From Lumbricus terrestris (taxonomy: Eukaryota > Annelida > Clitellata > Crassiclitellata > Lumbricidae): DNA of 64,000 nucleotides. The notes beneath the pieces were generated by a model that saw only the letters and a program-made list of their open reading frames with translations, was not told the origin of the DNA and did no database searches. How positions within the stretch are numbered: position 1 is the stretch's first letter; every line of letters begins with the position of its first letter. Positions 495 through 63,880 of this stretch are shown piece after piece. The stretch lies in NCBI GenBank assembly GCA_949752735.1, contig OX457047.1:5986166-6050165 (forward strand), read 5' to 3'. The position numbers and the translations under genes were made by a program.

Positions 495-531
495 TATATA
501 TAAATCTGTGTTATCACAATTAAAAGGTGTG
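495..531 (+). promoter_or_regulatory. TATA + AGGTGTG pair
   Basis: TATATATA begins at 495 and AGGTGTG at 525, a spacing of 28-30 bp depending on which TA step is counted. It belongs to the dispersed bipartite motif described in the findings. Downstream sequence is unique. Confidence 0.6.
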
Positions 532-1526
532 CAAAGTGTAAGTTTACGAAATCTGACGGCAAACATGTAATTGAGGCGTAATCAAATTGAGAAGTTTATT
601 AAAAACTTATTGTATTGAATTGTGGCTGATTAGAACTTGAAAAATACAGCGCTTCTCACTAATGATATAATAATTATAAACATGTTGAAACAAACGTCGA
701 CCGGACAGAAGTGCAATGGTAATGGTTCGGAGGTTCTAGTTAGGTTTACGACCGCATCTGTGTGACTGAAATACTAGAGGAAACGAGAGACATGAATGAC
801 CATGATGCTATGTCATATACTGTGATCGAAAAATACGAAGTCTCGAATACTTCGTGTTCATGGCTGATCCTCTCAGCTTTGCATCATTTTCATGGTGTGA
901 TTTTGACAGCGAACTTATTGAATTTCAGCAAATTTTAACTTCAGGCCAAGATATCGGCAAAAAACCTCAGTGGTCTTTTTAATGGCTCATCCTGAACATA
1001 AAAGGTGAAACTGTTTTGCACGTATTATCGAGTGCTACACTTCTGTCGGCGGTCAACATCGGTGGCGGTGATCTTGCTCGAAATGATATATACCAGTTTT
1101 GGGAAAGGACCATACACTCGCACCGCTGTGTCAACGACAAAGATGATTACCGTTCAACGACAAGTGTGATAAGCGTCGCACTCCTACTTTCGCTACGCCA
1201 GAAGCTGGTACCGGCGGAGAAAGAGAAATCGCCAAGTTGTGTAAAGTAACGTCAGTCTCATCACAGAATATGTGGCGTAATGCTTGTAACGCGAGCAATA
1301 AGTGGCATAATATTGTAGTAGATTCTGTTTAGCGACAGTGTATAATAACAGAACATCAGGGTCGTCAGCCTCCTCTTATGTGCAGTGGTGGGCATCGAGA
1401 TGGAAAGTTAGGATAGATTGATACATAGCTTAACGACAGACTTTGACAATAATGAATGCTGATTTCGACACAATTTGACTAAATTGCGGTTATGTTTAAT
1501 TCAAATTTTCAAACCTAGCCTGAACT

Positions 1527-1563
1527 TATATATAGCACCATTTGAACGTGCTTTAGAGGTGTC
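1527..1563 (+). promoter_or_regulatory. TATA + AGGTGTC pair
   Basis: TATATATAG at 1527-1535 and AGGTGTC at 1557-1563, spacing 28-30 bp. The spacer is unrelated to that of other pairs. Confidence 0.65.
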
Positions 1564-1997
1564 ATTTTCACTCTCTTTGTGACAATGACAAAGCGGTTAG
1601 CATAAATATTTTAGCTCGGTTATTTACCTTTAAAAATCTTTCCAAGACCTCACCGGTCATATACAGTTATCCAATGCGTCAATCCATTTGATATTTATTT
1701 CTATAGATCGTAAATCCGCAATTGGTGCTTTAAAAAGGCACGCGACAACATTACGATCCAGACATATGCGCAAAATTTATGGTGTTAATCAATTTTAACT
1801 ACAGCTACATGTAGGTATCAGTCGTCAGCACACCATTTGAAACGTTTTCATAGGATCTATAAGTAATTATAGGAATGACATATCTTCAATTTTGTTAGGA
1901 GGTGTGGACAACATGACTACAAGATGTCGTTAAACAATCAAAGCAACCAATTAACCGTTTGATGATAAGATTTAGATTACACTGATTAAGTGTGGTG

Positions 1998-2742: not shown

Positions 2743-2814
2743 CAAATTGAATTAACCCTTTAATGCCGGAGGGTATAGGATTTCCCATAGCATTTACTAC
2801 CATATCGGGGAGGG

Positions 2815-3139: not shown

Positions 3140-3395
3140 GGGTAAAGCTAGTACGTAATAAAAAACGTTCAAATATAAAATCACGGCTAAAGATAATAAT
3201 AATTTATAATTACTATAATATCAACGTCAAACAAGTCATATAATATAACATTCTGGTGATAAATCCCTTTCCATTCAACGAATCACATCACGTGATTCTG
3301 AGATGATGCGTAAGATGATGATGACGATGACGTTTCGTCCTTATATAGCACCGTGTGGCAACGTTATAAAAGTATCTAAGACGAACGCGCATCCA
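3140..3395 (+). repeat. Duplicated block H, copy 1
   Basis: Roughly 80% similar by eye to 15545-15793 in the same orientation. Shared landmarks are ACGTAATAAAAA, AACGTCAAACAAGTCAT, ACATTCTGGTGA, CCCTTTCCATTCA and the TATA/AAGTRTC pair at the right end. Both copies sit near TTGCAT-rich tracts and near kinesin-like exon segments, which suggests an old partial duplication of the locus. Confidence 0.75.
3342..3376 (+). promoter_or_regulatory. TATA + AAGTATC pair
   Basis: TATATAG at 3342 and AAGTATCTAAG at 3370, spacing 28 bp. The homologous copy at 15747 has AAGTGTCTAAG with identical spacing. Confidence 0.6.
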
Positions 3396-11830: not shown

Positions 11831-12234
11831 GATCTCGACTCTGAAATGTTTTACTCTTATCGACTGGGCTGAAAATAATGAAGCGATTAAAGTCAGTGAC
11901 CGGTCTGATAGCCGCCATACTGGATTTCATACATCAAAATCACAACTGGTATAATAATTCTCAATAGTTCAATTCACATTTCCTGAAAGAAATTGTTCTC
12001 GCGTAATCTCGTTTTCAATGACTTAACATCAACTCATCGAAACACGTTTTATTTCGTCGCAGATGTCGTCCATCTTGAATTTTGACCCTTGACATGCATT
12101 TGTTCCAGTAATTTCTGTTGACTCCATTTCTAAAACTAACCAATAAACGCTGAAGTATCCTTATGCGAGATTTCGTGTTTTACCTGCCGGACAACGACTT
12201 TTATGAATTACTATTTGCCAGATGAACGTAAAGT

Positions 12235-12271
12235 TATATATAGCATGAGAAACTAACGACTAAAAGGTGTT
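12235..12271 (+). promoter_or_regulatory. TATA + AGGTGTT pair
   Basis: TATATATAGC from 12235 and AAAAGGTGTTCAA with AGGTGT at 12265, spacing 28-30 bp. It is conserved in the inverted copy at 49141-49176. A second AAAGGTGTCC at 12312-12320 has no TATA box of its own. Confidence 0.65.
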
Positions 12272-13097
12272 CAAACATAACAAAACGATGGCAGAAATAG
12301 ATGACTTAATTAAAGGTGTCCAATCTTAATTACGTCTGAAGTGCATTTTCAGTATCATCACACATTTTACCTCAAAATGTGTCCAAATGGACTCTCTACA
12401 GCGATTTAAAATATCAAAATTTTATTCTCATACGAAACAAGATCGATTTGAGAAAATCCCTTGATAACCCGAGGGTTTAATTGACGTTAGAATAAGCTTG
12501 CCTATCTCGATATAACTGAAGAATCGTCCACGTGACGAATCGTCCGAGGACGAACAGTAAATCTCTCTTGAAAAAAAACCGTCTGGAGTTCGAGTCTAAC
12601 AAATAATTATAAGCACACAAAAGAGCAGCGGTCGTACATTGCGGTGTTTTTATGGATTACGTTTTTACCAAATGAATTGATATATTCTTTTGTTGATATT
12701 GATTAGCGGCATTAGATATTTTAATGTCGTTGCATCTACTTGATTTTTGGGCGCTGTCTCACTTGTCACAAGATGTCGCTTAAAATCATACAAATTTTCC
12801 ACGAATACTATTTAGCAGCAGACAAGAAACACAGAGTGCCTGTAATAGAAACTGCAAATTGATTTAGTAGTTTTGTATCTGTGTAGCAGTCTAACAATAT
12901 GAGTAAATATAAATAAATAAAAGCGCCAGAATACAAGCAAAACGTATTCCGTTCTCAACATAATAAGCCTGAACAAAGGTGGAGGGAGACGATATTGGTA
13001 CTTTTCATCACACATTCAACTGAAACAACTGCTTGTTTCCACTGCAGGATTGCAAGCATAATATTCAAAATTCAATGTGACTGCTTGGTCTACTTGA

Positions 13098-13130
13098 ACA
13101 CCTTTAAAACATAATGATAAGACGATATAA
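13098..13130 (-). promoter_or_regulatory. TATA + AGGTGTT pair, tandem copy 1
   Basis: Minus strand: CTTATATCG then TTTTAAAGGTGTTCAAG, spacing about 26 bp (AGGTGT starts at 13103). Confidence 0.55.
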
Positions 13131-13546
13131 GTATGTAAAGTTCTATTGCCGTCTTAAGTCAGCTTTGACAAGTTACTTAGATAGACTTAATTAGAGAACG
13201 GATTCGATAATACAACAACGAAATGATATCAAATGAAAACTCTACAACTACTACCACTATCACTACAACCACAACCATGACCACCACCGGATAATTAAAT
13301 TGTAGTTTTGTATCAGTGTAGCAGCCGAGCAGGATGAGTAAATATAAATGCCAATGCAGGAAACAATAGCGCCAGATAACAAGCAAAACTTATCCCGTTC
13401 TCAACATAATAAGCCTGAACAAAGGTGGATGGAGACGGTATTGGTCCTTTTTTTAATCACACGTTCAACTGAAACAACTGCTTGTTTCCACTGCAGGATT
13501 GCAAGCATAATATTCAAAATTCAATGTGACTACTTGGTCTACTTGA

Positions 13547-13579
13547 ACACCTTTAAAACATACGTATATTACGATATAA
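13547..13579 (-). promoter_or_regulatory. TATA + AGGTGTT pair, tandem copy 2
   Basis: Minus strand: CTTATATCG then GTTTTAAAGGTGTTCAAG, spacing about 26 bp (AGGTGT starts at 13552). The spacing and both motifs are kept although bases between them differ from copy 1. Confidence 0.55.
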
Positions 13580-13739
13580 GTATGCAAAGTGCTATTGCCG
13601 TCTTAAGTCAGCTTTGACAAGTTACTTTGATAGACTTAAAAAGAGAACGGATTCGAAACAACTAAACGATATAAAATGAAAATTCTACAACTACTACCAC
13701 TACAACCACAACCATAACAACCACCAGATAGTTAAATTG

Positions 13740-14389
13740 AATTCCTGTGATAACTTGCTAACGTTTTGAGACGACGACGGCAACGAAAATAACCACGTCG
13801 AATATTTAAAAAAGGATTAATTACACACCTTAAACAGTGTGTCTTCATTGCAATAAATAGCGCAAGAGCAGCGGATTTACAGCTGGGTCTTTTGCAATGA
13901 GCCCATTACAGATTTTATTTCAGCCCTGCCTTGAATGCGAGTGAATGTCATGGTAACATATAGAAACTTAAACTAATTTACCGGGTAACATTACGGTTTT
14001 GATAGTTCACTTTAATCCGTTAACGAATACTTACGAATATTAAAAAATCTTAATATTAACAAATATTTACGCATATTAAAACCTAAAGTCATGAATACTC
14101 GATCTATGATATATGGTCAAAAACGTCGGGAAAAGATATTATGCGCTTATCGTTTTGCTAAGACACAGCGTCCTTAAGCAGGACTAACCAACCGCACAGC
14201 GTTATAATTAATAATTAATTAGAATGAACAAATTATTTCTTCGATGTAAACGGCCTTTGTTGTCGCAAGATTATATTAAACTCTCGATGCAACGAATAAT
14301 GAGTTTGGATCGGACACCTTTAAAATCTTATGTTACGAGTCTTTATAAGCTCAACAAAACATAATATTTAACTACACAAAATTCGAGAA
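13740..14389. other. Unannotated AT-rich DNA
   Basis: No coding or repeat signal seen apart from the TATA/AGGTGTC pair at 14314-14349. Confidence 0.55.
14314..14349 (-). promoter_or_regulatory. TATA + AGGTGTC pair
   Basis: Minus strand: GCTTATAAAG then ATTTTAAAGGTGTCCG, spacing 28 bp (AGGTGTC starts at 14319). Confidence 0.65.
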
Positions 14390-14445
14390 AAACGGCCTCT
14401 GTTGTGATTAGCCCCCCGTCAAATCTGGATCCATCCATCCAACTG
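14390..14445 (-). repeat. Short dispersed repeat ending (ATCC)n, fragment
   Basis: AACGGCCTCTGTTGTGATTA, then CAAATCTGGATCCATCCATCC. This is the right part of a roughly 90-bp element seen about nine times in the window. Confidence 0.7.
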
Positions 14446-15544: not shown

Positions 15545-15793
15545 AGTAGTAATACGTAATAAAAACGTACAAATTAAAATCAACTAAATATAATAATTAT
15601 AATTGCTAAAAATATTAACGTCAAACAAGTCATCCTTAATATTATAACATTCTGGTGAAGAATCCCTTTCCATTCAGCGAATCACAACGCTTGATCTCTA
15701 GAATCTAGATTATGTAGAAGATGTTGATCACAACCCGTTTCGCCCTTATATAGCTCCGTGTGACAACGTTATAAAAGTGTCTAAGACGAACTT
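15545..15793 (+). repeat. Duplicated block H, copy 2
   Basis: Homologous to 3140-3395, same orientation. The match ends at CTAAGACGAAC where an RTE-like fragment begins. Confidence 0.75.
15747..15781 (+). promoter_or_regulatory. TATA + AAGTGTC pair
   Basis: TATATAGC at 15747 and AAAAGTGTCTAAG with AAGTGTC at 15775, spacing 28 bp. Paralogue of the pair at 3342. Confidence 0.65.
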
Positions 15794-16160: not shown

Positions 16161-16225
16161 TGAATGCTAATATTCTATGCTTGTCATTTATTAAAACTAC
16201 TTAATCGAATTTTGCATAGTCTATA

Positions 16226-16262
16226 TATATATAAAGTCAGTGACAAGCGTTTTAAAGGTGTC
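16226..16262 (+). promoter_or_regulatory. TATA + AGGTGTC pair
   Basis: TATATATATATAAAG ends at 16235; TTTTAAAGGTGTC has AGGTGTC at 16256. Spacing is 28-30 bp from the last TATA start. Confidence 0.65.
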
Positions 16263-16269
16263 ATGTACG

Positions 16270-16800
16270 TCATAATCTAGTGACCCGAATTAGTCATGTC
16301 TAAGTTATTGCTCAGGGTCCTGGGCACGACGTTAAACTGCATCCATCCTCTGCCACAGGGAACCAGCAACTTCCCTGTGCCGGTCCTAAGCCCAGATAAA
16401 ATGAGGAAGGTTTGCCAGATGGGTGGAGATACACTGGCAGTAAAAGACCAAGACCATTGAAATCCGCAAAATCTACGGCACAAGTGACATAGCGACCCAG
16501 ATGCTTCAAGGTGTCATGATGTGGAGCTGACATGCACAGGCCGGTCAGTACAGACCAGTGGAGAGAGTCGGGGGGAGAGAGCGTGGGACACATACGGGCA
16601 TTGACCCAGGTTGTCCTGCGTGCCTCTCTCCCAATATTCTCTTCACCAGACAAGGTGGTCTAGCTGGTTCAAGATGTTAATGGTATGGACCTGCAGACCG
16701 GACAGGTTGAAGATGGGCAACATGACGCGAGACAGACTCAAACAGAGAGTGGCGCCGGACACCTACGGGCGTTTAGCCCAAGGATTTCGATGATGATGAT
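16270..16800 (+). repeat. Probable LINE 3' fragment ending in (GAT)n
   Basis: GC-richer than its flanks and ending in a (GATGAT)n tail. On the plus strand the last codons read RDRLKQRVAPDTYGRLAQGF, which resembles the C-terminus of some endonuclease-RT LINEs. A minus-strand open frame here has no recognisable motif. Assignment is weak. Confidence 0.35.
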
Positions 16801-17510: not shown

Positions 17511-18104
17511 ATAAACGAATTCATACCACACATGACCTGTTTTAACCATACTAATATATTTTTACACCAATGGCCAAAATTAGTACAAATTACGAGATTT
17601 ACACACAAAAATCCATTACCATGGCAACTTCCAAGAAAAAATGTGTAAAATTAGGTTCAACCTAGGATAAAAAGTTGATTCTAATAGCCAAATATATCCC
17701 CCATGATGTTACACACAAAAGTTTTGAATGGGCATATGAAAATAATTATGCGAGTAAGAGGCTGGAAAGTCGAAAAAACACGATATTTCTAGGTGGTTCC
17801 AGACTTTTGCACACCACTGTATATTAATTTGCTGCAGAGTTTAAAGGCCGCTGCTGTCGATGCCAATAAAATATTAATTTGTATTCTAGTGTTTCTCTCT
17901 CTTCTGAATCTGGTTACTTGCAGCTATTCCACACTCTGTCAGAACGGAGACAGTTAGCATACCTTCATTGCCGTAATGGGCTGAACTCCTGGGTTAATTA
18001 ATGTTTGATTTCTGCAAAACAAAAAGTATTTATAGCAAATGTTCAACTTGCTTTAAATGTGTCTAAATTGGAGGCTCTTCAGAGACGATATTCAACTGTT
18101 TCTA

Positions 18105-19745: not shown

Positions 19746-19992
19746 TAGTAATTTCGAATATTTGAATATTGATTTCCTGTTTACATTGTCTGTCTATTTC
19801 GTAATAAAAAAGCAATAAATTATTGTATCAACCAATCTATAATTATTATATTGCTTGATGTGGCACAATAATAATAAATATTCTTTATTTTATGAAAACA
19901 ACTAACTCAAGATGATATTTTTTAAAAGTCTCTTGTAATGAGTTTTTGAAAGGAAATCAGATGACCGAAGTAAATGCAAATAATATTTTATT

Positions 19993-20029
19993 TATATATA
20001 AGGCTATGTATCTTGAATCTAAAGGTGTC
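19993..20029 (+). promoter_or_regulatory. TATA + AGGTGTC pair
   Basis: TATATATAAG at 19993 and CTAAAGGTGTCC with AGGTGTC at 20023, spacing 28-30 bp. Confidence 0.65.
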
Positions 20030-20689
20030 CAGGAGAGTCAATTAATCAATTAATCAACTTTCGTTTACTCAAAAAGTCTAGGCTTACAGATCGCAGTTTT
20101 TGCATTTAACTGACCACGTTTAATAATTTAGTCAATAATATGTTATACACTAACGACAATCTCACTGCATCTACGTCTTTTAGATCAATAGAAATCACTT
20201 AACTACATTTTGTTTTTGATTACGTGCTGCATGTTAAGATCGTGATGTTGTATGATATTGGCATTGGTAGGCGTAGCAGCCGCATGAAATCTTGGACACT
20301 GGCGGGACTTGTTTCATGATAGTAAACAAAAGCAGCAGTCTTCGAGACCTGTGTTAGCAACTTCATTATTTTACCTATAGCATCGACACTTGATGGCGGA
20401 CGATTGTTTGTCTTGCCTTACTGTATACACTGTATGTTCCTTTTCCACATTGATGTTATTGGGATGAGCGTCTTTTGTTGGCTGTCAACTTTCCATGTTT
20501 TTCTGTATTTTAGAAATGTTATGTAATCTCTGCCTGGGTTCGGTTTGACATCAATGTTTTAAAATAAACGAAGGTCATCATCGTACTTCACAACAGCCTA
20601 TTATGTTTCAGCCACAGCACAACGGTAGACACTCCTCGCCTCTCGCTTTCTCTGTCAGTGAAACTAACTTAGGCCTACATGGTTGAACC

Positions 20690-20745: not shown

Positions 20746-20836
20746 AGCGCAGCAATCTAACTAATCTGACTTACGTACATGTAATTTGTAAGCTAGATTA
20801 AATTTCTCTGTAACATTATTGCAGAGAAATTCTGCG

Positions 20837-20873
20837 TAATTATACGTTTGGATTAAAACCATTGAAAGGTGTT
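20837..20873 (+). promoter_or_regulatory. TATA-like + AGGTGTT pair
   Basis: TAATTATACG at 20837 and TTGAAAGGTGTTTAA with AGGTGT at 20867, spacing 26-30 bp. Confidence 0.5.
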
Positions 20874-20993
20874 TAAACAGATCGTAACATTATTTGGTAG
20901 AATTGTTAGCTTAACGACATCTTGCGGCAGTGTGGGTCGTTAACCTCGTTTTATATGTCGATTACAATTAATTTTCAAGCTCTTACTTTTAGT

Positions 20994-21655: not shown

Positions 21656-22389
21656 AGCTACGTAGTCTAGAGGTCTATGCTTATCTTCTTAATAACTATC
21701 AACGACTAAGCGATTGTTTTGTAATTTATATAGTTTTTTTGTAAAGTTAAAAATGATATTTACATGCTTGCCGTCTGTTACATCACCTACACACAAAGAT
21801 AGTCTAGGCAGATTCTAGGTGATTCTGCGCGACTCATTGACTTGCTGATTAGCCTGATTAGACCTATTGCACATAATTCAAAATTATTGCTGACGATTGC
21901 AGTAATTTCAGAGCAGGTGTTATTTATATTCTTTAGCACAATTATTAAACCGTTAGGCATATTCAATCGTGATAATCGACGCCGTCGGCGTAACATCAAA
22001 CTCCGTCAAAGGCAAATTATATAGCATATAGACAATCTATTATAAAGGTGTTTAATACCAGCCTTTTCTCGTCGTAGCCCTGTTTTAAGAATTTCCGCAT
22101 TTTCTTTCCTGAAGAATCATATATTTGCCAGAGATTGAACATAAATTTTAACGGCGCTCTACGCTACGCCATCCTTTCCGTCGCGTGGTAGAAGTTGTCG
22201 TCCACTCGCTCGCTAGATGGCCGCACGACTTTCTCGGACGAACTGACTGATCATCTGACTTGAATACTTGATCCAGAGTTTAGCAACAGGTCAAGACATG
22301 AAAGGCCGTTTTGCAATACTACAACTCAACTCTGCCCGACTGACTTAACTTCTAGCTAATATATAAACTGATTAAGCTTAAATCGGGAG
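21656..22389. other. Unannotated DNA
   Basis: No coding or repeat signal recognised except the TATA/AGGTGTT pair at 22018. Confidence 0.5.
22018..22052 (+). promoter_or_regulatory. TATA + AGGTGTT pair
   Basis: TATATAGC at 22018 and TTATAAAGGTGTTTAA with AGGTGT at 22046, spacing 28 bp. Confidence 0.65.
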
Positions 22390-26057: not shown

Positions 26058-26174
26058 CTAGCGACTGTACAACTCCAACTATGCCACTGTTGGAAGTTTG
26101 AAATGAAGTTTTTTTAAATTAGGTGATCCACGTTGTTCAACAGAACGCGAAGCGCTCCAGTAAAACGCGTAATT

Positions 26175-26210
26175 TATTTATAATGAGCGAGTTTACTTGT
26201 TAAAGGTGTC
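26175..26210 (+). promoter_or_regulatory. TATA-like + AGGTGTC pair
   Basis: TATTTATAATG at 26175 and GTTAAAGGTGTCTAAAT with AGGTGTC at 26204, spacing 29 bp. Confidence 0.6.
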
Positions 26211-41645: not shown

Positions 41646-42693
41646 TCGAGGAAAACACACGATATAACAATTATGTGGTCCAATCGTAATATTCACAAAA
41701 AAATGTATGGGCAAAACAAGAATATACCATAAGGAAATCTTAGGATCTACTATTTCGAGTCAGTTCATGCTTTGTTAATCTGGGACTTAGAAGCAAAGAA
41801 AAGTCATCTACTTGCCAGATGAGATTCCTTGTTTTACGATGGGTTGATATATACAGCCTACTATTCATTAATAACGTTTTACAGGTGTCTAGAGCGAGCG
41901 AAACTTTGAGAACGTTCCTCATAAAATAATCCAAAAACCTTCGTTATATTTAGCTACTTCTATATATTGACCTGAATACGATTTTCTTAGGTGAGACCTC
42001 AGTTGATGTCTTGTGTGCATTAAAAACTGGCGCTATAGAATTTGCGAATTACAATTTACAATAAAGCCAACATGTGCTTGGTTTGGTTGCTGTACATCCG
42101 ATCGTCAAGTTTCTTCCTTCTACTGAAGAATGTGTTCAGTTGTGATTGGCTTCTGCTTGGAAAGTTCGCACAGAAGATCCTGCGACATTTCATCCACGAG
42201 GACGGAATCAATTAGAGAATACAGGACGTCCGCATAGGTTTTTCGCGGAGACGATGGACTTCAACAAGGACATGGAGTGACGGATAGAAATGTCTAAAGC
42301 ATAACATACTTTTGTCCAAAAATAAAATCAATAGCCATTGTTATGTTATATTGTTATGTTATATTGTTATGTAATATTGTACAATGAGAATCAAAAATTA
42401 TAAGGACTTTAGAATAATACTTGAAATAATGTATATATATATATATATATATATCTATTCTTTTTATTGCAATGATTACCTTAATCTTTATTGCTGATAC
42501 TGCGGTCATTCAATTGTTGAATAACTGCACAATACCTTTGCACGCCTTTAATTCTGTTTCAACAACTCTATAAATTGGTTGCATGCGTAAAATAATTAAA
42601 TGCAACTGAGGAATATCCAATCAGAAAGAAGAGATACTGAACACGTGAACAGGTTAGCAAGACATAATATAGCGTATGTATACATACCTTTAA
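41646..42693. other. Mostly unannotated DNA
   Basis: Contains a TTATGTTATATTG tandem (about 42335-42380) and a TA run (42427-42452). A TATATAC at 41848 and AGGTGTC at 41883 are 35 bp apart, outside the usual spacing. Confidence 0.5.
41848..41889 (+). promoter_or_regulatory. TATA + AGGTGTC, long spacing
   Basis: TATATACAGC at 41848 and TTTTACAGGTGTCTAGAG with AGGTGTC at 41883; spacing 35 bp makes this an outlier. Confidence 0.35.
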
Positions 42694-43682: not shown

Positions 43683-44838
43683 ACAATATACAAGATTCTT
43701 AGAGTCTGCTCTCCAGTCGCTTTTATTTTGCACGTTTCATATAATTATGATTGCGAGCTAAGCGCAGAATGCCTCTTTCTCTGACGTCCCCGTCTAATAA
43801 CTGAGTCTCTCGTAGCATGATGTTCCTGTAGGATCCTTTCCTGGAAGGCCCATCGTAAGCTAGCCTCTGGCTTCCTTCTCTGTATTCGCTGACAAGTCTC
43901 TATCTGTCTCTTATCCTGCATTTCTGCACACGATATTATTCTAATCACTTACCAGGGTACTTTTAACTTCTCTCAAACTCCCACTGTATGGTTGTACTCT
44001 AAACATTAGTTATTAGTAAAAAACCACATTCATTAGATTTGGTAGGCCTACCAAGGACACGTTTAAAACTAACCATATACTAACCATATACCGGGCACTA
44101 ACAGGCTTCTTATTCGATTGATATTGGGGTACCTCTGATAGCGGGACTTGTCCCTTTGAGCTCCATTTTTAGTGCACAACCGGATAATTATCATCTCTTA
44201 GTTTACGATGTGCTGATTATTATTTGTGCTATTTTAATCACCAATGTGGTTATTTTTGTTTGTGTTCAATTGATGCCTTCAAAAATGGTTATTTTTATTT
44301 TAATCGATTGATTGATTAAGATGGGCGGACAAATGTATGGTCTTTCAGTTATTTACCGACAGCAGATTGATAGATATATCTTAGACACCTTTAAATTGCA
44401 ATCATTATATGTATATATAATTAAAATGTGAAAAGAAAATATCTATTTTGAAATGATTATAATCAAAGTTGGATCAGTCGTTGCATCACAGGATAAATTA
44501 TGATTAAGCTGTGTAATTTTTCAAAAATCGGGACGTGATCTGAACTTCTTGATATTTGAGTAATTAGATTGATGACAACTATACGCCTACCTTGATAAAA
44601 CAAAAGAAGTAGGTCTACACCCTGTTAAAAATTAAAAATTGCTGTTCTTCAAATCAGCTTTGATTTCAGCAATATGGTTTAACAAATCCCAGTCCGATTT
44701 CACTGAAAATTATTTTGTTTAATCTGATTTCCAATTTGCAAGAGTTCTTTTCGTCAATCCGACTTGTATCTGATAAGCATTGAAACCCATGCAATGGCGA
44801 ATATTTAAATATGTTAAAATGCACTTTAACCGAAAAGA
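43683..44838. other. Unannotated DNA
   Basis: A weak minus-strand frame near 43745-43948 has no recognised domain. The pair at 44384-44419 is listed separately. Confidence 0.5.
44384..44419 (-). promoter_or_regulatory. TATA + AGGTGTC pair
   Basis: Minus strand: TTATATATAC then CAATTTAAAGGTGTCTAAG, spacing 27-29 bp (AGGTGTC starts at 44390). Confidence 0.65.
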
Positions 44839-45599: not shown

Positions 45600-47710
45600 T
45601 TTTAATTGTCCATAAATACAATTATAATTTTAAAAAGGTTAAGCTTTAATTGAAATTATAGAAAAAAAGGTGTGCAATTCCAAATGTGTGCCAAAATTAA
45701 ATTTTTCAGTTTTCTCGAAAGCCAGACGTGCTCCAAAAAAACAAAGCACCACTGCATTCAGCATTAATTTCAATTATAGTTCACCCATCTAAGACAAAAT
45801 TTATTTGGTTGGGCACACGGCAGCAGCTTGCCAAGCTTGATCTATTTTCTCTTGCATCTGAGTTTCCTGGCTTTGTCTTTGCAAACACGGTTCATGACCT
45901 CGGTGTCCAACTTGACCAAGAACTAACTTTTGCTCCTCAACTTCACCGTCTTGCTCGAGACTGCTATTATCAGCTGCGCCAGCTTCGCACTGTCATCCGT
46001 TCTCTTACGTCTGCTGCTACTCTTACTTTAGTGCATTCTTTCGTTACATCTCGCATCGACTATTGCTCTTCGCTCTACGTTGGCCTCCCATCCAGCAGAT
46101 TGACTTGTCTTGACCGGGTGTTGCGCTCTGCTGCACGCCTAATTGGGAAAATCCCTAAGTATGATCATGTCTCAAACTACATGCTTGAGGTACTTCACTG
46201 GCTCCCTATTCGCCAGCGTATCGAGTTCAGGGTAGCTGCATTGGTATGGCGATGTTGTCAAGGCCTTGCCCCAACTTACCTCCGTGAGCTATGCAGCTCT
46301 ACATTGGGTATCCAAGGACGTCGTCAGCTACGCTCTGCTGATAGGGGAGTCCTCTTAGTTCCTTTTGCTCGTACTACTACCATGAAGGATCGAGCCTTTT
46401 CTGTGGTTGGACCAGTGGTCTGGAATGGCCTTCCTTTTGAGCTACGCCTACACCCTGGAACTCTACCAGGATCCTTCCTTACTAAACTTAAAACTGTTCT
46501 TTTTGTGCGCGCTGGAGTTGGGAGCGCTTCTGAGTAGTTTTTCTTGAAGGAGCGCTAAATAAATGTCCGAATGAATGAATGAATGAATAGTAAAAAAGGT
46601 GTGCAATTGCAAATGTGTGCTATAAATAAATATTTCAGATTTCTCAAAAACTTGACGTGATACAAGAAAAACAAACACACCACTGCATTAAGCATTAATT
46701 GAAATTATAGAAAAAAAGGTGTTGAATTCCAAATGTGTGCCAAAATTAAATATTTCAGTTTTCTCGAAAACCAGACGTGCTCCAAAAAAAACAAATCACC
46801 ACTGCATTCAGCATTAATTGCAACTATAGTAAAAAAAGGTGTGCAATTGCAAATGTGTGCTATAATTAAATATTTCAATTTTCTCAAAAATCTTACGTGT
46901 TACAAGTAAAAAAAAAAAACACCACTGCATTCAGCATTAATTGCAATTATAGTAAAAAAAGGTTTGCAATTCCAAATGTGTGCCAAAATTAAATATTTCA
47001 ATTTTCTCAAAAACTTGAAGTGCTACAAGAAAAACAAACACACCACTGCATTAAGCATTAATTGAAATTATAGAAAAAAAGGTGTGCAATTCCAAATGTG
47101 TGCCAAAATTAAATATTTCAGTTTCCTCGAAAACCAGACGTGAAACCAAAAAAAACCCAAGCACCACTGCATTCAGCATTAATTGCAATTATAGTAAAAA
47201 GGTGTGCAATTGCAAATGTGTGCCAAAATTAAATATTTCAGTTTTCTCAAAAACTTGACGTGCTACAAGAAAAACAAACACACCACTGCATTCAGCATTA
47301 ATTGCAATTATAGTAAAAAATGGTGTGCAATTCCAAATGTGTGCCAAAATTAAATATTTCAGTTTGCTCAAAAACCTGACGTGCTACAAGAAAAACAAAA
47401 ACAACACTGCATTAAGCATTATACGCAATTATAGTAAAAAAGGTGTGCAATTCCAAATGTGTGCCAAAATTAAATATTTCAGTTTTCTCAAAAACCTGAC
47501 GTGCTACAAGAAAAACAAAAACAACACTGCATTGAGCATTATACGCAATTATAGTAAAAAAGGTGTGCAATTCCAAATGTGTGCCAAAATTAAATATTTC
47601 AGATTTCTCGAAATCCAGACGTGCTATAAAAAAACCCAAAGCACCACTGCATTCAGCATTAGTTGCAATTATACTTTTAAAAAGGTGTGCAATTGCAAAT
47701 GTGTGTCAAC
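45600..47710 (+). repeat. 120-122 bp satellite array
   Basis: Units contain AAAAAAGGTGTGCAATTGC, AAATGTGTGCCAAAATTAAA, TATTTCAGTTTTCTC, ACGTGCTACAAGAAAAAC and CACCACTGCATTCAGCATTA. AGGTGTG recurs near 46598, 46718, 46838, 46960, 47080, 47200, 47320, 47441, 47561 and 47683. One further unit lies left of the inserted LINE. The nearest TATAG is only 12 bp before AGGTGTG, so these do not fit the promoter-like spacing. Confidence 0.92.
45728..46537 (+). CDS. CR1/L2-like LINE RT C-terminal half
   Basis: The LINE-derived part of this open frame begins at about 45780 inside the satellite. SKTKFIWLGTRQQLAKLDL is followed by HDLGVQLDQELTF, RDCYYQLRQLRTVIRSL, LRSAARLIGKIPKYDHVSNY, HWLPIRQRI and FSVVGPVVWNGLPFELRL, ending VGSASE. 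It aligns with residues ~175-428 of the ORF at 7870-9156, with the same C-terminus. The catalytic YADD box is missing because of 5' truncation. The stem-loop GGAGCGCTTCTGAGTAG...GAAGGAGCGCT and a (GAAT)n tail follow to 46590. The element inserted into an already amplified satellite. Confidence 0.88.
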   Translation: MLQKNKAPLHSALISIIVHPSKTKFIWLGTRQQLAKLDLFSLASEFPGFVFANTVHDLGVQLDQELTFAPQLHRLARDCYYQLRQLRTVIRSLTSAATLTLVHSFVTSRIDYCSSLYVGLPSSRLTCLDRVLRSAARLIGKIPKYDHVSNYMLEVLHWLPIRQRIEFRVAALVWRCCQGLAPTYLRELCSSTLGIQGRRQLRSADRGVLLVPFARTTTMKDRAFSVVGPVVWNGLPFELRLHPGTLPGSFLTKLKTVLFVRAGVGSASE

Positions 47711-48137
47711 ATTAAATTTTGCCCGACTGTCTTTAAAAAATATGTCATATGAAGCTTTAAATTTCAAAGCAGCGTTCACAAACTGAAGAACTTTCCTTTT
47801 TCCGCGTCCAAAAATATTATACAATAATTATTCCGAATTTGTTGAAGCGACAGCTTAAAATGTTGCCGTTTCGGTGTGGATATTTATTAAAAATTTCCAA
47901 GTTTTCACTTTTGAGATCTTAAATCACGACTTTCAGCACTGAAATGATGAGCCATTTAATTAAAACGACATCCTAAAATGCTACTACAGCAATGTGGAAA
48001 TTCAAATTTTTTTCTGGACTTAAACGTTCACAAACAGCTAGCAAACAAGAGCCTGTAACGTGCTCTAGTCAATGTCAACAGCCAAAAAGCGTTTGTTTCT
48101 GGGGCTCCGCCCCAGGCCCCGCTGGAGGAGCTTACCA

Positions 48138-49830: not shown

Positions 49831-50632
49831 TGCGGGATATAATTGGAGTCATCGTAATCGTAGTTGAGTTGTTTGATTGGTCGAACGCTTGCAAGCATAA
49901 TTATTCTGGATTCGAATGTGTGATTCATATCGATGCAGAGTCGTCGCCAGCAATTGTTAATGTACCCAAACTGTCTCGCTTAAACACCTTCAAATCACTT
50001 TATCATAATGCTAGAAAACCAATAATCTTCGTGCAGTCTTTACTTCATGATTAAGTCGAAGTTTAATTGATAAAAATAATTCGTCCGAAGTCCGAACACA
50101 GAATTTCGATGTACGAAAACATTTCACAATTAAATAGAAGCTGCAGCCTGCATGGATGAAAATGGCCGTTGCTTAAACAGAAACTACACTGCTGAAATGA
50201 ATTCATGATTGTATGGAAGCTGGATTGAAGAAATCAATTCATGCTAACATATAAGTTGGGTTGATGAAAATAACTCATGAACAAATGAGGCTGGCACGAT
50301 CAAAATAATTATTGATAAAACAAAAGTTGCGCTGACGAAAAGAATTCATGACCTAAGCAGAAGTTGGATTGATAAAAAGAATGCATGATTATATATGAGT
50401 TGAAAGGTTAAACATAAGCTGGACAATTGAAAGGAATTTATGATTACATGGAAACTGGATGGATGAAAATAATTCATGATTAAAAACAACGTGCAGTTGT
50501 TAAAACTAAGAACTTTTATCACGGTATCACTTTATCACATGAAATATTTCACAGCTCTTCAGAGTGTGGAGTTTCTACTTTGTGAAAAAATTATAAATGA
50601 TGTATCAATGTTTGCTGAATTTTCTTATAATT

Positions 50633-50667
50633 TATATAAATTTGAAATAAAACAAATAAAGGGTGTC
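50633..50667 (+). promoter_or_regulatory. TATA + GGGTGTC pair
   Basis: TATATAAA at 50633 and AATAAAGGGTGTCG with GGGTGTC at 50661, spacing 28 bp. Confidence 0.55.
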
Positions 50668-50713
50668 GAAATGAAACTTCTTCACACGTAGTATCGAGTT
50701 TGTTTGTATGCGC

Positions 50714-51665: not shown

Positions 51666-51703
51666 GACACCTTTTAAACGGGATCTTCCGACCAAATAAT
51701 AAA
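51666..51703 (-). promoter_or_regulatory. AT-rich box + AGGTGTC pair
   Basis: Minus strand: TATTATTTGG then GTTTAAAAGGTGTCG, spacing about 29 bp (AGGTGTC starts at 51672). It lies back to back with the plus-strand pair at 51751. Confidence 0.45.
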
Positions 51704-51750
51704 TTGAATTGGAAACGTGAAAATTGGTTTACTCGATCCATTCTCACTTT

Positions 51751-51785
51751 TATATAATATCGCGATTGAGCGTTAAAAAGGTGTC
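51751..51785 (+). promoter_or_regulatory. TATA + AGGTGTC pair
   Basis: TATATAAT at 51751 and GTTAAAAAGGTGTCTG with AGGTGTC at 51779, spacing 28 bp. Confidence 0.65.
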
Positions 51786-52587
51786 TGTAGTCTCAAAACG
51801 CTAAAAATGTTCAATATTTTGATTTGTCACTGAGACCTGTTAATTAATCGAAGAAATTCCCATTTCGATCGTCATGGGTTCAACATTGTGACGACAGAGG
51901 AAGTAGAGCCATGTCGGTTCGCTTGACATCGGATATGGCTAACAATAATATATGCATGTTTTTCTGTTGGTAGGTCTACCGTGTGGCTCTTACTTGATCA
52001 GATGATAAATTATATCCTTCACCAACGCTTTTCATTTGAATAATATATGATAAGCCATTTTAGGCAACTGTGGTTAGGGAAATTCGAATCTGTAGAATAA
52101 GTCAACATTGATATGCAGCCCAGCATAATGCTACATGCAATACTTTACAATTTTGGAAGCTCAACAGTTCTTGCTTGGCTTGTGTATGCCAACCAACTTT
52201 GACAAATGCATTTACTCAATGTAATAGTCCAGCAGCAGAACGGAGCTACTACATATGAGACATAATTTAAATTGTTATTGTAATAATAATTATATTTCTC
52301 ACAATCGTAAATCAGTCTTTCTATCAGCACTGAAATAATATAGTATGTTTGCTTGCATGACACCTTGAAATGGTACCGTTGCAATGTGGAAACTCAATAA
52401 GAAATTGTTATATTTTAATAATCATTTATTGAAGTCTTGAATCACTCTTATCATCACTGAAATAGAGTAATTTTATTCAGATGGCACAAGAAAATGCACT
52501 CATTGCAATGTGGAATATAAAATATTCTGGTTGGGGAGGGGAACATCCGCCTCGGCGATCGTCCTTCAGCCGTTCGCTCGTCCATTG
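51786..52587. other. Unannotated DNA
   Basis: No gene or repeat recognised. One ACACCTTGAAA at 52360 lacks a TATA partner. Confidence 0.5.
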
Positions 52588-53805
52588 ATCATTGGCCAGT
52601 AGAGATACGCTTTGGGGGTAATGTTCAAAGCAAAGGAAATGGACATTTATTTGAAAGAAAAAACGAGCGACATGTGGATTATGTAACGTCCAAAACAAAC
52701 GATTCAAAGGTGTCATTGGCCAGTAGAGATACGCTTTGGGGGTAATGTTCAAAGCAAAGGAAATGGACATTTATTTGAAAGAAAAAACGAGCGACATGTG
52801 GATTATGTAACGTCCAAAACAAACGATTCAAAGGTGTCATTGGCCAGTAGAGATACGCTTTGGGGGTAATGTTCAAAGCAAAGGAAATGGACATTTATTT
52901 GAAAGAAAAAACGAGCGACATGTGGATTATGTAACGTCCAAAACAAACGATTCAAAGGTGTCATTGGCCAGTAGAGATACGCTTTGGGGGTAATGTTCAA
53001 AGCAAAGGAAATGGACATTTATTTGAAAGAAAAAACGAGCGACATGTGGATTATGTAACGTCCAAAACAAACGATTCAAAGGTGTCATTGGCCAGTAGAG
53101 ATACGCTTTGGGGGTAATGTTCAAAGCAAAGGAAATGGACATTTATTTGAAAGAAAAAAACGAGCGACATGTGGATTATGTAACGTCCAAAACAAACGAT
53201 TCAAAGGTGTCATTGGCCAGTAGAGATACGGTTTGGGGGTAATGTTCAAAGCAAAGGAAATGGACATTTATTTGAAAGAAAAAACGAGCGACATGTGGAT
53301 TATGTAACGTCCAAAACAAATGATTCAAAGGTGTCATTGGCCAGTAGAGATACGGTTTGGGGGTAATGTTCAAAGCAAAGGAAATGGACATTTATTTGAA
53401 AGAAAAAACGAGCGACATGTGGATTATGTAACGTCCAAAACAAACGATTCAAAGGTGTCATTGGCCAGTAGAGATACGCTTTGGGGGTAATGTTCAAAGC
53501 AAAGGAAATGGATATTTATTTGAAAGAAAAAACGAGCGACATGTGTATTATGTAACGTCCGAAACAAACGATTCAAAGGTGTCATTGGCCAGTAGAGATA
53601 CGGTTTGGGGGTAATGTTCAAAGCAAAGGAAATGGACATTTATTTGAAAGAAAAAACGAGCGACATGTGGATTATGTAACGTCCGAAACAAACGATTCAA
53701 AGGTGTCGCTCATAAGGACCATTAGCAAGCAAAGCTAACTACTAGAGATACGGTTTGGGGCAATGTTCAAAACAAAGGAAATGGACATTTATCTGAGAAA
53801 TAAAA
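52588..53805 (+). repeat. 124-bp satellite containing TATA/AGGTGTC pairs
   Basis: Nine near-identical 124-bp steps (one is 125), with partial units at both ends. Each has TATGTAACG then, 28 bp later, CAAAGGTGTCATTGG. AGGTGTC starts at 52708, 52832, 52956, 53080, 53205, 53329, 53453, 53577 and 53701. Units also contain GGGGGTAATG and ACATTTATTTGAAAG. Repeated 71-codon minus-strand frames are shadows of the repeat. The last partial unit (53735-53805) is diverged. Confidence 0.93.
52680..53707 (+). promoter_or_regulatory. Array of nine TATGTAA + AGGTGTC pairs
   Basis: In the unit examined in full (TATGTAA at 52680, AGGTGTC at 52708) the spacing is 28 bp; the repeat keeps it in the others. If the pair is a promoter, the satellite is a tandem array of nine identical short transcription units. 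Confidence 0.5.
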
Positions 53806-54254
53806 CACACTCCGAAATGGCTTCTTTCAATTTCTCTTCATCTGAGGGATTCGATTATTAGAGAAACTGTATTTCATGACACCGGTCAAAGGCAAGACAT
53901 GTACCATAAACTACAATCTTTTCAAGCAAAGGCTGATCGAAGACCAGCTAATTCGGCAATAGAAGTTGTTAGACCTAAGCTACTTGGAGTTTTAGACGTC
54001 TCTAGAACCAATCTGACAAGGCGCAGCGCTCGTGAATAAGTCAATAGATGTTTTGCAAAATATTTCCCTAAATTGTATGCTTAGAATGTAGTTTCTGGAT
54101 AGATAAGAAATCACAACACCTTAATTATTGCGTCAGATTAGTTTTAAACACCATTTTTAATCTTTTCAAGTTTCTTATAATAAGCGCGTGGCTTCTTCGA
54201 AGTATTTCTTCGAAGTTCTGAAACAGAAAGAAAAAGGTCTTCTCCTTATTGCTC
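53806..54254. other. Unannotated DNA
   Basis: No gene recognised; contains the pair at 54148. Confidence 0.5.
54148..54183 (-). promoter_or_regulatory. TATA + TGGTGTT pair
   Basis: Minus strand: TTATTATAAG then TTAAAAATGGTGTTTAA, spacing about 28-30 bp. The right half is TGGTGT, so it is a variant. Confidence 0.4.
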
Positions 54255-60945: not shown

Positions 60946-62261
60946 TCTGGCGGCTAACTATCCGCGCCTCAGATTCACACTTTGGTGTGACCTTGCGCGC
61001 GTAATAAATTTATGTAATAATAATAACAATAATAATGATCTAATGACGAAGCATCTTTCGATGGCGCTGAGCAACTTACTGTGAGTTTTTTGTTCAAATG
61101 AAGTAAGTCGCTAACACTACAAGGAACTGAAAATTTCCCCAGAAGTGATGGCGCTTAGTCAAAACAAAGTTGAAAGACAGGTATGAACAAAATCGCTTTG
61201 AAGTCAAGATCGGAGATGTTGGATAGTGTTTGTAATGAAAACAGCAAAAAGTTGAGAGGAGGGTGGGCATGTGATCAGATCGGATTTTTTCTAAACAGCG
61301 GTCTTCTTAGTAGGCCTACTAATTATTGAAGACCTTTGGTGGGTTCTTCGGATGGCGCAATTTGGGATAATTGTGTTACAACAAACACAGTCGTCGAGGG
61401 GTGTGGACAAATGCTCTGCGGCCCGGCGAATTTTAGGGGAGCCCGGGCCAGGCAAATGTACAATGTACACGCAGTCTAAGACTTTAGTATTGTTAAATAT
61501 AATATTACAGATATTTAGCTTCAATAAGTTTAAACTTCAAATTAACAGCCGAATAAAAGCATTATCGCCTATTTAATCGATAATATAAAATCGTAATTCA
61601 TGCTGGCAGCTTTTCAGTTAAATCAAATTCTGTTTCTAAGCATTTTTTCTAAGCATTTTTTCTCATAAAGACATCCGATAGTTTAGGACTGGTGCCCCTC
61701 ACTCTTCTGTCAATGTAGGCCCCTACTAGGAATTTCTATCGTCAGCCCACCCAGTGAATTAGGAATATATTGACGTCCATAGGAAACAATTGCGATCAGT
61801 TCTCAACCGCAAATGGCGACGCATTTCTTGTGATCGGATAGATTCAGAGTTTAACGACAGTTTATAACAAGAATCGACGTTGTCGTCGACAGAATTTCAG
61901 AGTTTCTCATTAATTGCCCATGTGTAATGCGTTAATTGGACAAAATTCCAAGGATCGTCTACGGTCAAATTCAGCCACTGGTAGCCGTATTTCGCAAACA
62001 CTGGCCAAGTTGATGGCGTCGTTAGATACCTTTTTAATGTGGTCGACCGACTCTATATAAGCGTCCGAAATATTTAAGACAATGCACCACTGGGCCGCTG
62101 CCAAGGGGTAAAACCCTGTAAGCCTGTATAGTGGGAGGTCAATGCCGAGGTACATCGTGCCCGTAAACCTAATAAAACAAAAACAAAAATAAAACTAGAA
62201 TAATATCATTAGCTCAATCGTCGATTGACCAAATGATAATATACTGTAATATTTTCACACT
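60946..62261. other. Mostly unannotated DNA
   Basis: A short AATAATAAT run follows the LINE (its probable tail, about 61015-61038). A weak open frame near 61352-61576 has no recognised domain. The pair at 62025 is listed separately. Confidence 0.5.
62025..62060 (-). promoter_or_regulatory. TATA + AGGTATC pair
   Basis: Minus strand: CTTATATAGAG then TTAAAAAGGTATCTAAC, spacing 28 bp (AGGTATC starts at 62031). It has the same G-to-A change as the pair at 3342. Confidence 0.6.
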
Positions 62262-63281
62262 AGCTGGGGTACCCGGCGTTGCCCGGGAAATATAGGATTC
62301 GACCCGCTGCAGTCACAACCCCACCACACCACACCACACCACACCCACGCTTCCACCCCACCACAACCCATCCACCCCAAAACACCCCACCACACTCCGA
62401 AATCCGACGGTACGCCACCCGTGAAATTTTCACTCCCAGCCCTACCCGCCAGACCTCCTCACCCACCCACCCCACCCCCACCACACTCCGACCTTCACCG
62501 GAACGCCACCCGTGAAATTTGGGTTTTCTTGAAAATTCCCACCCCTACCCAAGGCCGTAGCCAGGATTTGATTTGGGGGGGGTGTTTCTTCAGTTTCCTG
62601 TCCGAAAAATTGATGACTTTTTGTTAGTCATCCGGCCGAATCTTTAGAAAATGTCACCAATTTCCCGTCCGAAAAAAGGATGACCTTTTTTAATCATCCG
62701 GTCGTTTTTTCACAGAGGTGAATATACGCTGTATACGCGCGTATACCATTGATTACAGCCCTGCTTTCTTATCATTTTTTGGCCTAATTTCATGTTTTTT
62801 CCATTATGTGCTAGTAAATGCATTCTATTATGTTACAGTTTTCATAATGGGGGGGGGGGTGTTTTTCATAGTTTTATTTCATGGTTTTTGCATCATGTGT
62901 TAGTAAATGCAGTATATTATTTTTACATTTTCCATTTCGGGGGTGTTCAAACACCCAAAACACCCCCTAGCTACGGCCTTCCCATTCCACACCCTACCCC
63001 ACCCCACCACACTCCGACTTCCCTCACCCCATCTCACCCCTACACACACCAAGGGTCGAGATGTATGTTAGGTGGAGGCGAGGTGTCCCGTGTAAAAATC
63101 TGTCTAGCTGTAACGTTTCAGGTGAATAAGTGTGAAAAATATGCATTGCAACGGCTGAAAAAGTAGCAAAAATGAGGGGTTTTGCCCCCACCCTGGCCCA
63201 TAGTGATTTTTGGATCGCGATCCCCCTATGTCGGGTCGAATTCTAAATTTCCCGCGCAACGCCAGGTACCCCAGCTAGTAT
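62262..63281. mobile_element. TIR element CTAGCTGGGGTACC...
   Basis: CTAGCTGGGGTACCCGGCGT then TGCCCGGG at the left is mirrored by CCCGCGCAACGCCAGGTACC then CCAGCTAG at the right. Interior is C-rich (ACCACACC, CACCCCACC) and has CGCCACCCGTGAAATTT twice. A second TIR element lies inside. Confidence 0.75.
62545..62988. mobile_element. Nested TIR element AAGGCCGTAGCCAGG...
   Basis: AAGGCCGTAGCCAGGATTTG at about 62550 and CCCCTAGCTACGGCCTT at about 62980 are inverted. The interior has GTCCGAAAAATTGATGAC and TTAGTCATCCGGCCG words related to the family at 40438, and GGGGGG runs. TSD not resolved. Confidence 0.65.
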
Positions 63282-63880
63282 AATATATAAGATATATAAT
63301 TGAAAAAAACAAAGATAATGATTTTGTTATTTTCGCTGGTTTCAATTCTATCGCATCAGCTCAGATACTTGCACACCTTTAAAACATTGTATTTTTCTCA
63401 AATATATGTTTGAAATTTTCACTGAATCGATGTATTTTATTAAACCACAGCGGTATGATAATGTTACATCAATCATGGCTCTAGTATAACAATAAGATGC
63501 GATTCATCACAGAATATTGAAACAGTCGCCACAACTGCCATACTCTTAAGCATCACGTGGAAACTACTATCGCAAAAAATTGATGAACGACATTTCCTTC
63601 GATCTCCCGTAATATAATTGTACAATGTCATGTATGACTGATGTTGCATGGCAATCTGGGCACGGCTGGCAAAAGGGAATTTTGGCGGAAGTAGGAATCA
63701 ACGCCACTTAACACTGCAATGGAAGTTAGGCTAACTGGCGACCAGACTTGGACTGTCATCACCATCATTCGTCTGACATGCATACATATAAGATTGTTTG
63801 GGCAAGGATCACTTGCACTCTTCATGAAAAATAATATTGCGACTGATGTATAGTTTTTCGTGTGTAAAGTTTGCACCATG
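63282..63880. other. Unannotated DNA
   Basis: No gene recognised; contains the pair at 63372. Confidence 0.5.
63372..63408 (-). promoter_or_regulatory. TATA + AGGTGTG pair
   Basis: Minus strand: CATATATTTG then GTTTTAAAGGTGTGCAAG, spacing 28 bp (AGGTGTG starts at 63378). Confidence 0.55.

What the first reader, a model, noticed from the sequence alone, without database searches (positions are those of the whole stretch)
495..63408. Dispersed promoter-like unit: TATA box, 26-30 bp, then AAAGGTGTC(TAA)
Seen directly: about 30 places outside satellites, on both strands, where a TATA-like box is followed at nearly fixed distance by AAAGGTGTC or a one-base variant. Examples with AGGTGT start and spacing: 1557 (28-30), 12265 (28-30), 14319 minus (28), 16256 (28), 20023 (28), 22046 (28), 30792 minus (28), 35920 (26), 44390 minus (28), 51779 (28), 62031 minus (28), 63378 minus (28). 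Spacers and downstream sequences are otherwise unrelated, so this is not one repeat family. TATA boxes act about 30 bp upstream of a start site (established), so AGGTGTC sits where a transcript would begin. Inference: a family of very small transcription units, about one per 2 kb. Known parallels are the C. elegans 21U-RNA genes, each with its own short upstream motif, and snRNA-type promoters. AGGTGT words without a correctly placed TATA also exist (12314, 16512, 49051, 52365), so not all sites are complete.
Basis: partly seen in the sequence, partly recalled or inferred. Interest (0 to 1): 0.93.

Follow-up and report, generated by a model that had tools for sequence, protein, structure and literature searches.

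The report
snRNA-promoter mini-genes, possibly for piRNAs
The repeated motif is the back side of this animal's small-nuclear-RNA promoter element: many scattered copies of that promoter appear to fire short RNAs, much like the one-promoter-per-piRNA genes known from nematode worms, but in an animal that is apparently not a nematode.

Summary
AAAGGTGTC is the reverse complement of ACACCTTT, the core of the PSE (SNAPc site) of this genome's own U1, U2 and U6 genes. A matrix from 108 dispersed units ranks the PSE place first of about 6,300 positions in 9 of 17 snRNA loci read (5/5 U2, 3/5 U1, 1/7 U6). Dispersed units have Pol II snRNA geometry (PSE to TATA 23 bp, as in most U1/U2 read), not U6 geometry (28 bp). 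The RNA would start about 53 bp beyond the PSE core, running away from AGGTGT. There 64 of 249 units read A-N-T (about 26 expected); T at +3 goes with A at +1 (p = 2e-4), the start signature of nematode 21U-RNA precursors. A strict PSE+TATA pattern gives 125 hits genome-wide against 0 in the control, mostly near contig ends. Telomeres are mainly TTAGGG, so very probably not a nematode. Best reading: tens of thousands (rough estimate) of SNAPc-driven Pol II mini-genes for short, probably piRNA-like, RNAs. Promoter identity and polarity are close to certain; the RNA product is inferred, without RNA data. On the window's own contig A-N-T is weak (9/51).

The parts
443..542 (-).
   Evidence: start placed by analogy with U1/U2
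3288..3387 (-). Unit with PSE variant (3370); TATA 3340-3347; predicted start 3317; by eye a relative of the 15775 unit
12183..12282 (-). Unit; PSE core 12265, TATA 12235-12242, predicted start 12212; by eye a relative of the 49146 unit
13086..13185 (+). Unit; PSE core 13103, TATA 13126-13133, predicted start 13156; duplicate of the 13552 unit
13535..13634 (+). Unit; PSE core 13552, TATA 13575-13582, predicted start 13605
14302..14401 (+). Unit with weaker TATA (TTTATAAG 14342-14349); PSE core 14319, predicted start 14372
15693..15792 (-). Unit; PSE core variant 15775, TATA 15745-15752, predicted start 15722
16174..16273 (-). Unit; PSE core 16256, TATA 16226-16233, predicted start 16203
17975..18074 (-). 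Unit; PSE core 18057 (one-base variant), TATA 18027-18034, predicted start 18004
19941..20040 (-). Unit; PSE core 20023, TATA 19993-20000, predicted start 19970
20785..20884 (-). Unit; PSE core 20867, TATA 20837-20844, predicted start 20814
21964..22063 (-). Unit; PSE core 22046, TATA 22016-22023, predicted start 21993
26122..26221 (-). Unit; PSE core 26204, TATA 26175-26182, predicted start 26151
29195..29294 (+). Unit; PSE core variant 29212, TATA 29237-29244, predicted start 29265
30775..30874 (+). Unit; PSE core 30792, TATA 30816-30823, predicted start 30845
35168..35267 (-). Unit; PSE core 35250, TATA 35220-35227, predicted start 35197
35838..35937 (-). Best-scoring unit of the window; PSE core 35920, TATA 35892-35899, predicted start 35867 (reads AAT)
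   Evidence: listed genome-wide as C13:6022059-6022094
42530..42629 (+). Unit; PSE core variant 42547, TATA 42569-42576, predicted start 42600
44373..44472 (+). Unit; PSE core 44390, TATA 44412-44419, predicted start 44443
50579..50678 (-). Unit; PSE core variant 50661, TATA 50631-50638, predicted start 50608
51697..51796 (-). Unit; PSE core 51779, TATA 51749-51756, predicted start 51726
54136..54235 (+). Weak unit (matrix score 12); PSE core variant 54153, TATA at 23 bp
62014..62113 (+). Unit; PSE core variant AGGTAT at 62031, TATA 62054-62061, predicted start 62084
63361..63460 (+). Unit with weaker TATA; PSE core 63378, TATA-like 63401-63408, predicted start 63431
46587..47717 (.). 120-bp satellite (9.4 copies) with one PSE-like core per repeat in most copies, no TATA at 23 bp; not counted as units
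52589..53707 (.). 124-bp satellite (9 copies) holding one PSE-like core per repeat with TACATAAT at 23 bp; not counted as units

Best explanation
Each unit is a minimal Pol II snRNA-type promoter. TBP binds the TATA box 23 bp past the ACACCT core, and Pol II starts on an A about 53 bp past that core, running away from the PSE. The short RNA would be capped, lose its first two bases, and become a small RNA with 5' U, as in nematode type I piRNA (21U-RNA) genes. Thousands of such one-promoter-one-RNA genes, with different products, sit in clusters near chromosome ends. SHOWN: shared element, polarity, spacing, genome-wide excess, clustering, A-N-T excess at the place where U1/U2 start. INFERRED: SNAPc/TBP/Pol II usage (from the snRNA genes), transcription itself, trimming, PIWI loading, germline role.
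For: (1) The loci read for U6 (L029-L035, 7 of 16 hits), U2 (L057-L061, 5 of 46) and U1 (L062-L066, 5 of 19) carry ACACC on their sense strand at fixed distance from the start: 52-53 bp in 9 of 10 U1/U2 (50 in one), 58 bp in 6 of 7 U6 counting two with the reduced core ACC. (2) A matrix from 108 dispersed units ranks that place first among about 6,300 positions on both strands in 9 of 17 snRNA loci and in the top 4 in 13 of 17. (3) Spacing: searching 14-33 bp past the core, the best TATA is at 22-24 in 68 of 82 TATA-bearing units; a TATA-like box is at 22-23 in 7 of 10 U1/U2 (in one of them only the second best), but at 28-30 in the 6 U6 with a core. Drosophila makes a similar distinction: PSEA-8 bp-PSEB for Pol II, PSEA-12 bp-TATA for U6 (PMC4227766, passages). 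(4) TTAGACACCTTTAAAACG-N{1,31}-TATATA: 125 hits (overlapping ones counted apart) against 0 for the reversed control; the gap is 12-16 in 79 of the 90 places left after merging the 100 listed rows. (5) At core+53 A-N-T is the top of 70 offsets in units with TATA (36/112; mean 11.9, sd 4.5) and, separately, without a good TATA (28/149; mean 14.9, sd 3.6). By contig: C1 46/177 (other offsets mean 18.3, max 31), L069-L086 on C4-C10 9/18 (mean 1.7, max 4). (6) T at +3 depends on A at +1: 64/108 against 49/141, p = 1.8e-4; of +2 to +9 the next smallest p is 0.03 at +6. (7) No Rfam family at gathering score in window or L001-L028. (8) Downstream flanks differ: 261 of 308 sites remain after removing those with 50% or more flank identity.
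Against: No RNA, ChIP or relatives' genomes were available. The +53 test was not planned beforehand: A+53/T+54 already stood out, before I measured U1/U2. On the window's own contig A-N-T at +53 is weak: 9/51 (other offsets mean 5.1, max 9), and 3/21 in TATA units. In units without TATA alone the A-T coupling gives p = 0.08; T at +4 is also raised in TATA units. C or T before the A, part of nematode YRNT, is hardly enriched (19 YANT of 36 ANT). In the nematode P. sambesii piRNA loci have no TATA box (PMC6436959, passages). 149 of 261 matrix sites lack a well-placed TATA. SNAPc and PIWI gene searches got no answer. Two U1 loci (ACACCA) and two U6 loci (L029, L032) rank low in the matrix test.
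Confidence: 0.63

Rival explanations
1. U6-type Pol III mini-genes: PSE plus TATA recruits Pol III and makes short RNAs ending at the first T run.
For: A real TATA box, as in U6, stronger than in U1/U2. In units without a good TATA, TTTT up to +40 (36/139) is a little commoner than AAAA (26/139).
Against: PSE-TATA spacing is 23 as in most U1/U2, not 28 as in U6; 67 of 107 TATA units have no TTTT from about +19 to +110, and TTTT up to +40 (11/107) is rarer than the control word AAAA (25/107).
Confidence: 0.14
2. SNAPc-driven Pol II units that make short non-coding RNAs other than piRNAs (snRNA-like, or by-products of bound SNAPc), with A-N-T only an initiator preference.
For: Promoter evidence is the same; no PIWI link was tested; the YR step is not clear.
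Against: T at +3 is coupled to A at +1 whereas the U1 and U2 starts read ATA and ATC; downstream sequences differ, unlike a snRNA family.
Confidence: 0.16
3. Dead promoter copies spread by transposons or satellites (PSE-bearing repeats), with no present function.
For: Two satellites and some repeat families carry the core; the start signature is weak on C13.
Against: Most sites have unrelated flanks while PSE, spacing, TATA and start signature persist; the 120-bp satellite and the 28115/33864/43310 family lack a TATA at 23 bp.
Confidence: 0.05
4. One reading: transcripts start at AGGTGTC.
For: A TATA at about 26-30 bp on that side too, because TATATA reads both ways.
Against: Known starts of U1/U2/U6 lie on the other side of the same element; in the other polarity the box reads (C/T)TATATAA, close to the usual TATA consensus (recalled; counts); beyond +16 downstream of AGGTGT no position exceeds 0.15 bits in 100 TATA units.
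Confidence: 0.01

Closest known systems
Nematode type I piRNA (21U-RNA) genes, SNPC-4/USTC dependent
   Same: One short promoter derived from the SNAPc site per RNA; thousands of units in megabase clusters (C. elegans); purine start with T at +3; in P. sambesii and P. murrayi the piRNA motif is almost the whole SNAPc motif, as here; TBP-1 takes part in C. elegans (PMC6436959 and PMC6317315, passages).
   Different: Host has mainly TTAGGG telomeres, so very probably not a nematode; units carry a real TATA box; no RNA shown.
Pol II snRNA promoters (U1, U2) of the same genome
   Same: Same PSE core, 52-53 bp to start in 9 of 10, TATA-like box at 22-23 bp in 7 of 10.
   Different: snRNA genes are followed by U1/U2 sequence; dispersed units by differing sequence without an Rfam match in the window and L001-L028, with a stronger TATA and a T at +3.
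U6-type (type 3) Pol III promoter
   Same: PSE plus TATA.
   Different: TATA is 5 bp closer to the PSE; T-run terminators not enriched in TATA units.

Membership tests
SNAPc (PSE) promoters of this genome | PSE sequence shared with the U1/U2/U6 genes | tested here: met
   Rank 1 in 9 of 17 snRNA loci, top 4 in 13 of 17
SNAPc (PSE) promoters of this genome | Fixed PSE-TATA/start geometry | tested here: met
   TATA at 22-24 in 68 of 82 units; U1/U2 22-23 in 7 of 10
SNAPc (PSE) promoters of this genome | Bound by SNAPc | not testable with these tools
   needs ChIP or CUT&Tag
Pol III type 3 promoter | U6 spacing and T-run terminator | tested here: not met
   23 against 28 bp; no TTTT to about +110 in 67 of 107 TATA units
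Nematode-type 21U-RNA (type I piRNA) gene | SNAPc-derived upstream motif, one per locus | tested here: met
Nematode-type 21U-RNA (type I piRNA) gene | YRNT start: purine +1, T at +3 | tested here: inconclusive
   A+1 and T+3 enriched and coupled; Y at -1 barely; weak on C13
Nematode-type 21U-RNA (type I piRNA) gene | Megabase clustering | tested here: met
   listed places: C13 0.9-8.2 and 42.3-44.9 Mb, C14 5.9-12.1 and 38.3-46.2 Mb, none listed between
Nematode-type 21U-RNA (type I piRNA) gene | Pausing signature: low-melting valley after the piRNA | tested here: inconclusive
   GC 0.39 at +4..+23, 0.34-0.35 at +44..+83 in TATA units, no drop without TATA; post hoc
Nematode-type 21U-RNA (type I piRNA) gene | 5'-U small RNA in a PIWI protein | not testable with these tools
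   no RNA data; PIWI gene search unanswered
Nematode-type 21U-RNA (type I piRNA) gene | Host is a nematode | tested here: not met
   TTAGGG arrays, with some TTAGGC units, at C1 end and TTAGGG at C2 start; that nematodes use TTAGGC is recalled; no tool named the species

The most novel reading that the evidence does not exclude
An animal outside the nematodes makes many of its piRNAs from tens of thousands of autonomous SNAPc/TBP/Pol II mini-genes in subtelomeric clusters. If so, snRNA-promoter-driven piRNA genes either arose twice or are older than nematodes.
Probability: 0.53. Interest if true: 0.96.

Novelty: new variant of a known kind. Interest (0 to 1): 0.9.

Why it matters
Single-promoter piRNA genes with snRNA-type promoters are described in nematodes (PMC6436959, passages). 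The listings of my paper searches showed none elsewhere, though most subscription papers are not held and only titles and abstract starts were seen. The same promoter layout, a like start signature and clustering in an apparently non-nematode animal with a 1 Gb genome would change the picture of how piRNA genes evolve. The finding gives precise coordinates at which RNA ends must fall, so small-RNA data from the species could settle it quickly.

Tried and rejected
Forward polarity (start at AGGTGTC): rejected by the snRNA genes. Pol III reading: disfavoured. snRNA pseudogenes: no Rfam hit in the window and L001-L028. T-box half-site (AGGTGT, recalled): does not explain the fixed TATA spacing or the snRNA positions. 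Species: a protein search with the 7870-9189 reverse transcriptase gave unnamed relatives; not resolved. Neighbouring units share a strand in 93 of 143 (p = 4e-4), some of it possibly from old tandem duplication. Duplicate pairs were listed but not used to measure selection. SNAPC3 (PF12251), Piwi (PF02171), U5 (RF00020) and U4 (RF00015) genome searches did not complete (server busy). Number of units: 5,436-227 exact 12-mers times 50/6 from the window is about 43,000; times 22/6 for TATA units about 19,000; the ratio rests on 6 sites, so an order of magnitude only.
Full report
OBSERVATION. The window lies at C13:5986166-6050165 of a 1.056 Gb genome of 331 contigs. AAAGGTGTC and one-base variants occur 70 times in the window against 15.2 in shuffles, 17 of them in two satellite arrays. 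Outside the satellites a TATA word sits at -28 to -23 from the motif (35 hits; none from -60 to -33; small groups at -7 to -3 and +37 to +46). A weight-matrix scan of 288 kb finds 229 sites above 10 bits against 10 in Markov controls, and 99 against 1 with a placed TATA; the matrix was trained on part of the same sites.

IDENTITY. I asked whether the element occurs in genes whose start is known. U6, U2 and U1 genes of the same genome were found with Rfam models (16, 46 and 19 hits); I read the 5' flanks of 7 U6, 5 U2 and 5 U1. All 5 U2 and all 5 U1 read ACACC(T/A), with the core's last base 52-53 bp before the start (50 in one U2). Of the 7 U6, 4 read ACACCT and 2 a reduced ACC, all six 58 bp before the start; one (L032) has nothing. 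AGGTGT is the reverse complement of ACACCT. A matrix built only from 108 dispersed, TATA-bearing units (consensus cgaTCtatTTAGACACCTTTAAAACG) ranks the snRNA PSE place first among about 6,300 positions in 5/5 U2, 3/5 U1 and 1/7 U6 loci, and in the top four in 13 of 17; U1 L063 and L066 (ACACCA) and U6 L029 and L032 rank low. So the dispersed motif is the proximal sequence element of this animal's snRNA genes, read from its back.

GEOMETRY AND POLYMERASE. On the transcript strand the best TATA within 14-33 bp of the core starts at 22-24 in 68 of 82 units with a good TATA; in the larger set, filtered to 21-26, it is at 23 in 66 of 112. In U1/U2 a weak TATA-like box is at 22-23 in 7 of 10; in U6 a TATA is at 28 (5) or 30 (1) of the six with a core. 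The dispersed units thus have the Pol II spacing, with a stronger TATA. Drosophila shows a 4-bp difference of the same kind between Pol II and Pol III snRNA promoters, and there PSEB and TATA do not choose the polymerase (PMC4227766, passages). In TATA units T-run terminators are not enriched: 67 of 107 have no TTTT from about +19 to +110.

START SIGNATURE. U1/U2 start at core+52/53. In the units, A at +53 and T at +54 had already stood out in a first listing of 82, before I measured U1/U2, so this agreement was not a planned test. In 112 units with TATA, A stands at +53 in 52% and T at +55 in 48%. A-N-T at +53 is the most frequent of 70 offsets in units with TATA (36/112, mean 11.9) and in units without (28/149, mean 14.9); without the snRNA loci it is 36/108 and 28/141. 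T at the third base is tied to A at the first (64/108 against 49/141, p = 1.8e-4; 0.08 in units without TATA alone), which a T-rich stretch by itself would not give. L069-L086, picked only for PSE and TATA on C4-C10, give 9/18 (other offsets at most 4); C1 gives 46/177; C13, the window's contig, only 9/51, equal to the best other offset. C. elegans SNPC-4-motif 21U loci have YRNT starts with capped RNAs beginning 2 nt upstream of the U (PMC6436959, passages). Here the Y is barely enriched. The first 28 bases are A-poor, and GC drops after about +24 in TATA units, which resembles the pausing valley of nematode piRNA loci but was found post hoc.

GENOME-WIDE. AAAGGTGTCTAA: 5,436 against 227 reversed. 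On the eight contigs with listed places whose length I know, 27 of 28 places lie within 9 Mb of a contig end (C8:13.5 Mb is the exception); about 26% would be expected by length, but the 9 Mb limit was chosen after seeing the places, and places within a cluster are not independent. C13 and C14 have clusters in both arms. No place was listed on C2, C3 or C9. Neighbouring units share a strand in 93 of 143 cases. Scaling from the window suggests tens of thousands of sites (order of magnitude only).

HOST. Telomere arrays are mainly TTAGGG (last 13 kb of C1, with some TTAGGC units, and the start of C2); nematodes use TTAGGC (recalled). Eighteen contigs (C1, C2, C4-C19) hold hits at multi-megabase coordinates. 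I take the host to be a non-nematode animal, but no tool named it.

CONCLUSION. Many scattered copies of a complete Pol II snRNA-type promoter precede nothing recognisable, with differing downstream sequence, and share a start signature known from nematode piRNA precursors. The most economical account is autonomous short-RNA genes, most likely piRNA genes. What is shown is DNA; transcription, cap, trimming and PIWI loading are inferred.

Noticed in passing
C1:35370900-35377983, C1:45971539-45980150, C1:76036607-76043843, C2:14907990-14915987, C2:18509945-18518565, C2:29716962-29725964, C2:53095245-53103072 (genome G000): Pairs of outward-facing telomeric repeats (CCCTAA ... TTAGGG) 7-9 kb apart inside chromosomes, as if telomere-capped linear elements had inserted (capped list).
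   Followed up: no
46587-47717 and 52589-53707: Two satellites (120 and 124 bp) carry a PSE-like core about once per repeat; the 124-bp one also has TACATAAT at the TATA place. They may be amplified former units.
   Followed up: partly
28115, 33864, 43310 (and L009:4296, L013:7072, L028:5217): A dispersed repeat family carries an ACACCT core without a TATA at 23 bp.
   Followed up: partly
L036 (C14:12038684) and C14:9.1-12.7 Mb: Seven diverged U6-like copies on C14; the one read (L036) is fused to other sequence and has several PSE matches beside it.
   Followed up: no
55485-59046: Large inverted duplication with the same reading frames on both arms; GTGCCGCGGCACACTAGTGTGCCGCG words at about 56847 and 57684, between the arms. 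It looks like a hAT-type transposon; that name is recalled, no family search was made.
   Followed up: no
C9:29.54-29.81 Mb: U2 gene array with 14 equal-scoring copies plus 7 diverged ones among the hits scored, all on one strand.
   Followed up: no
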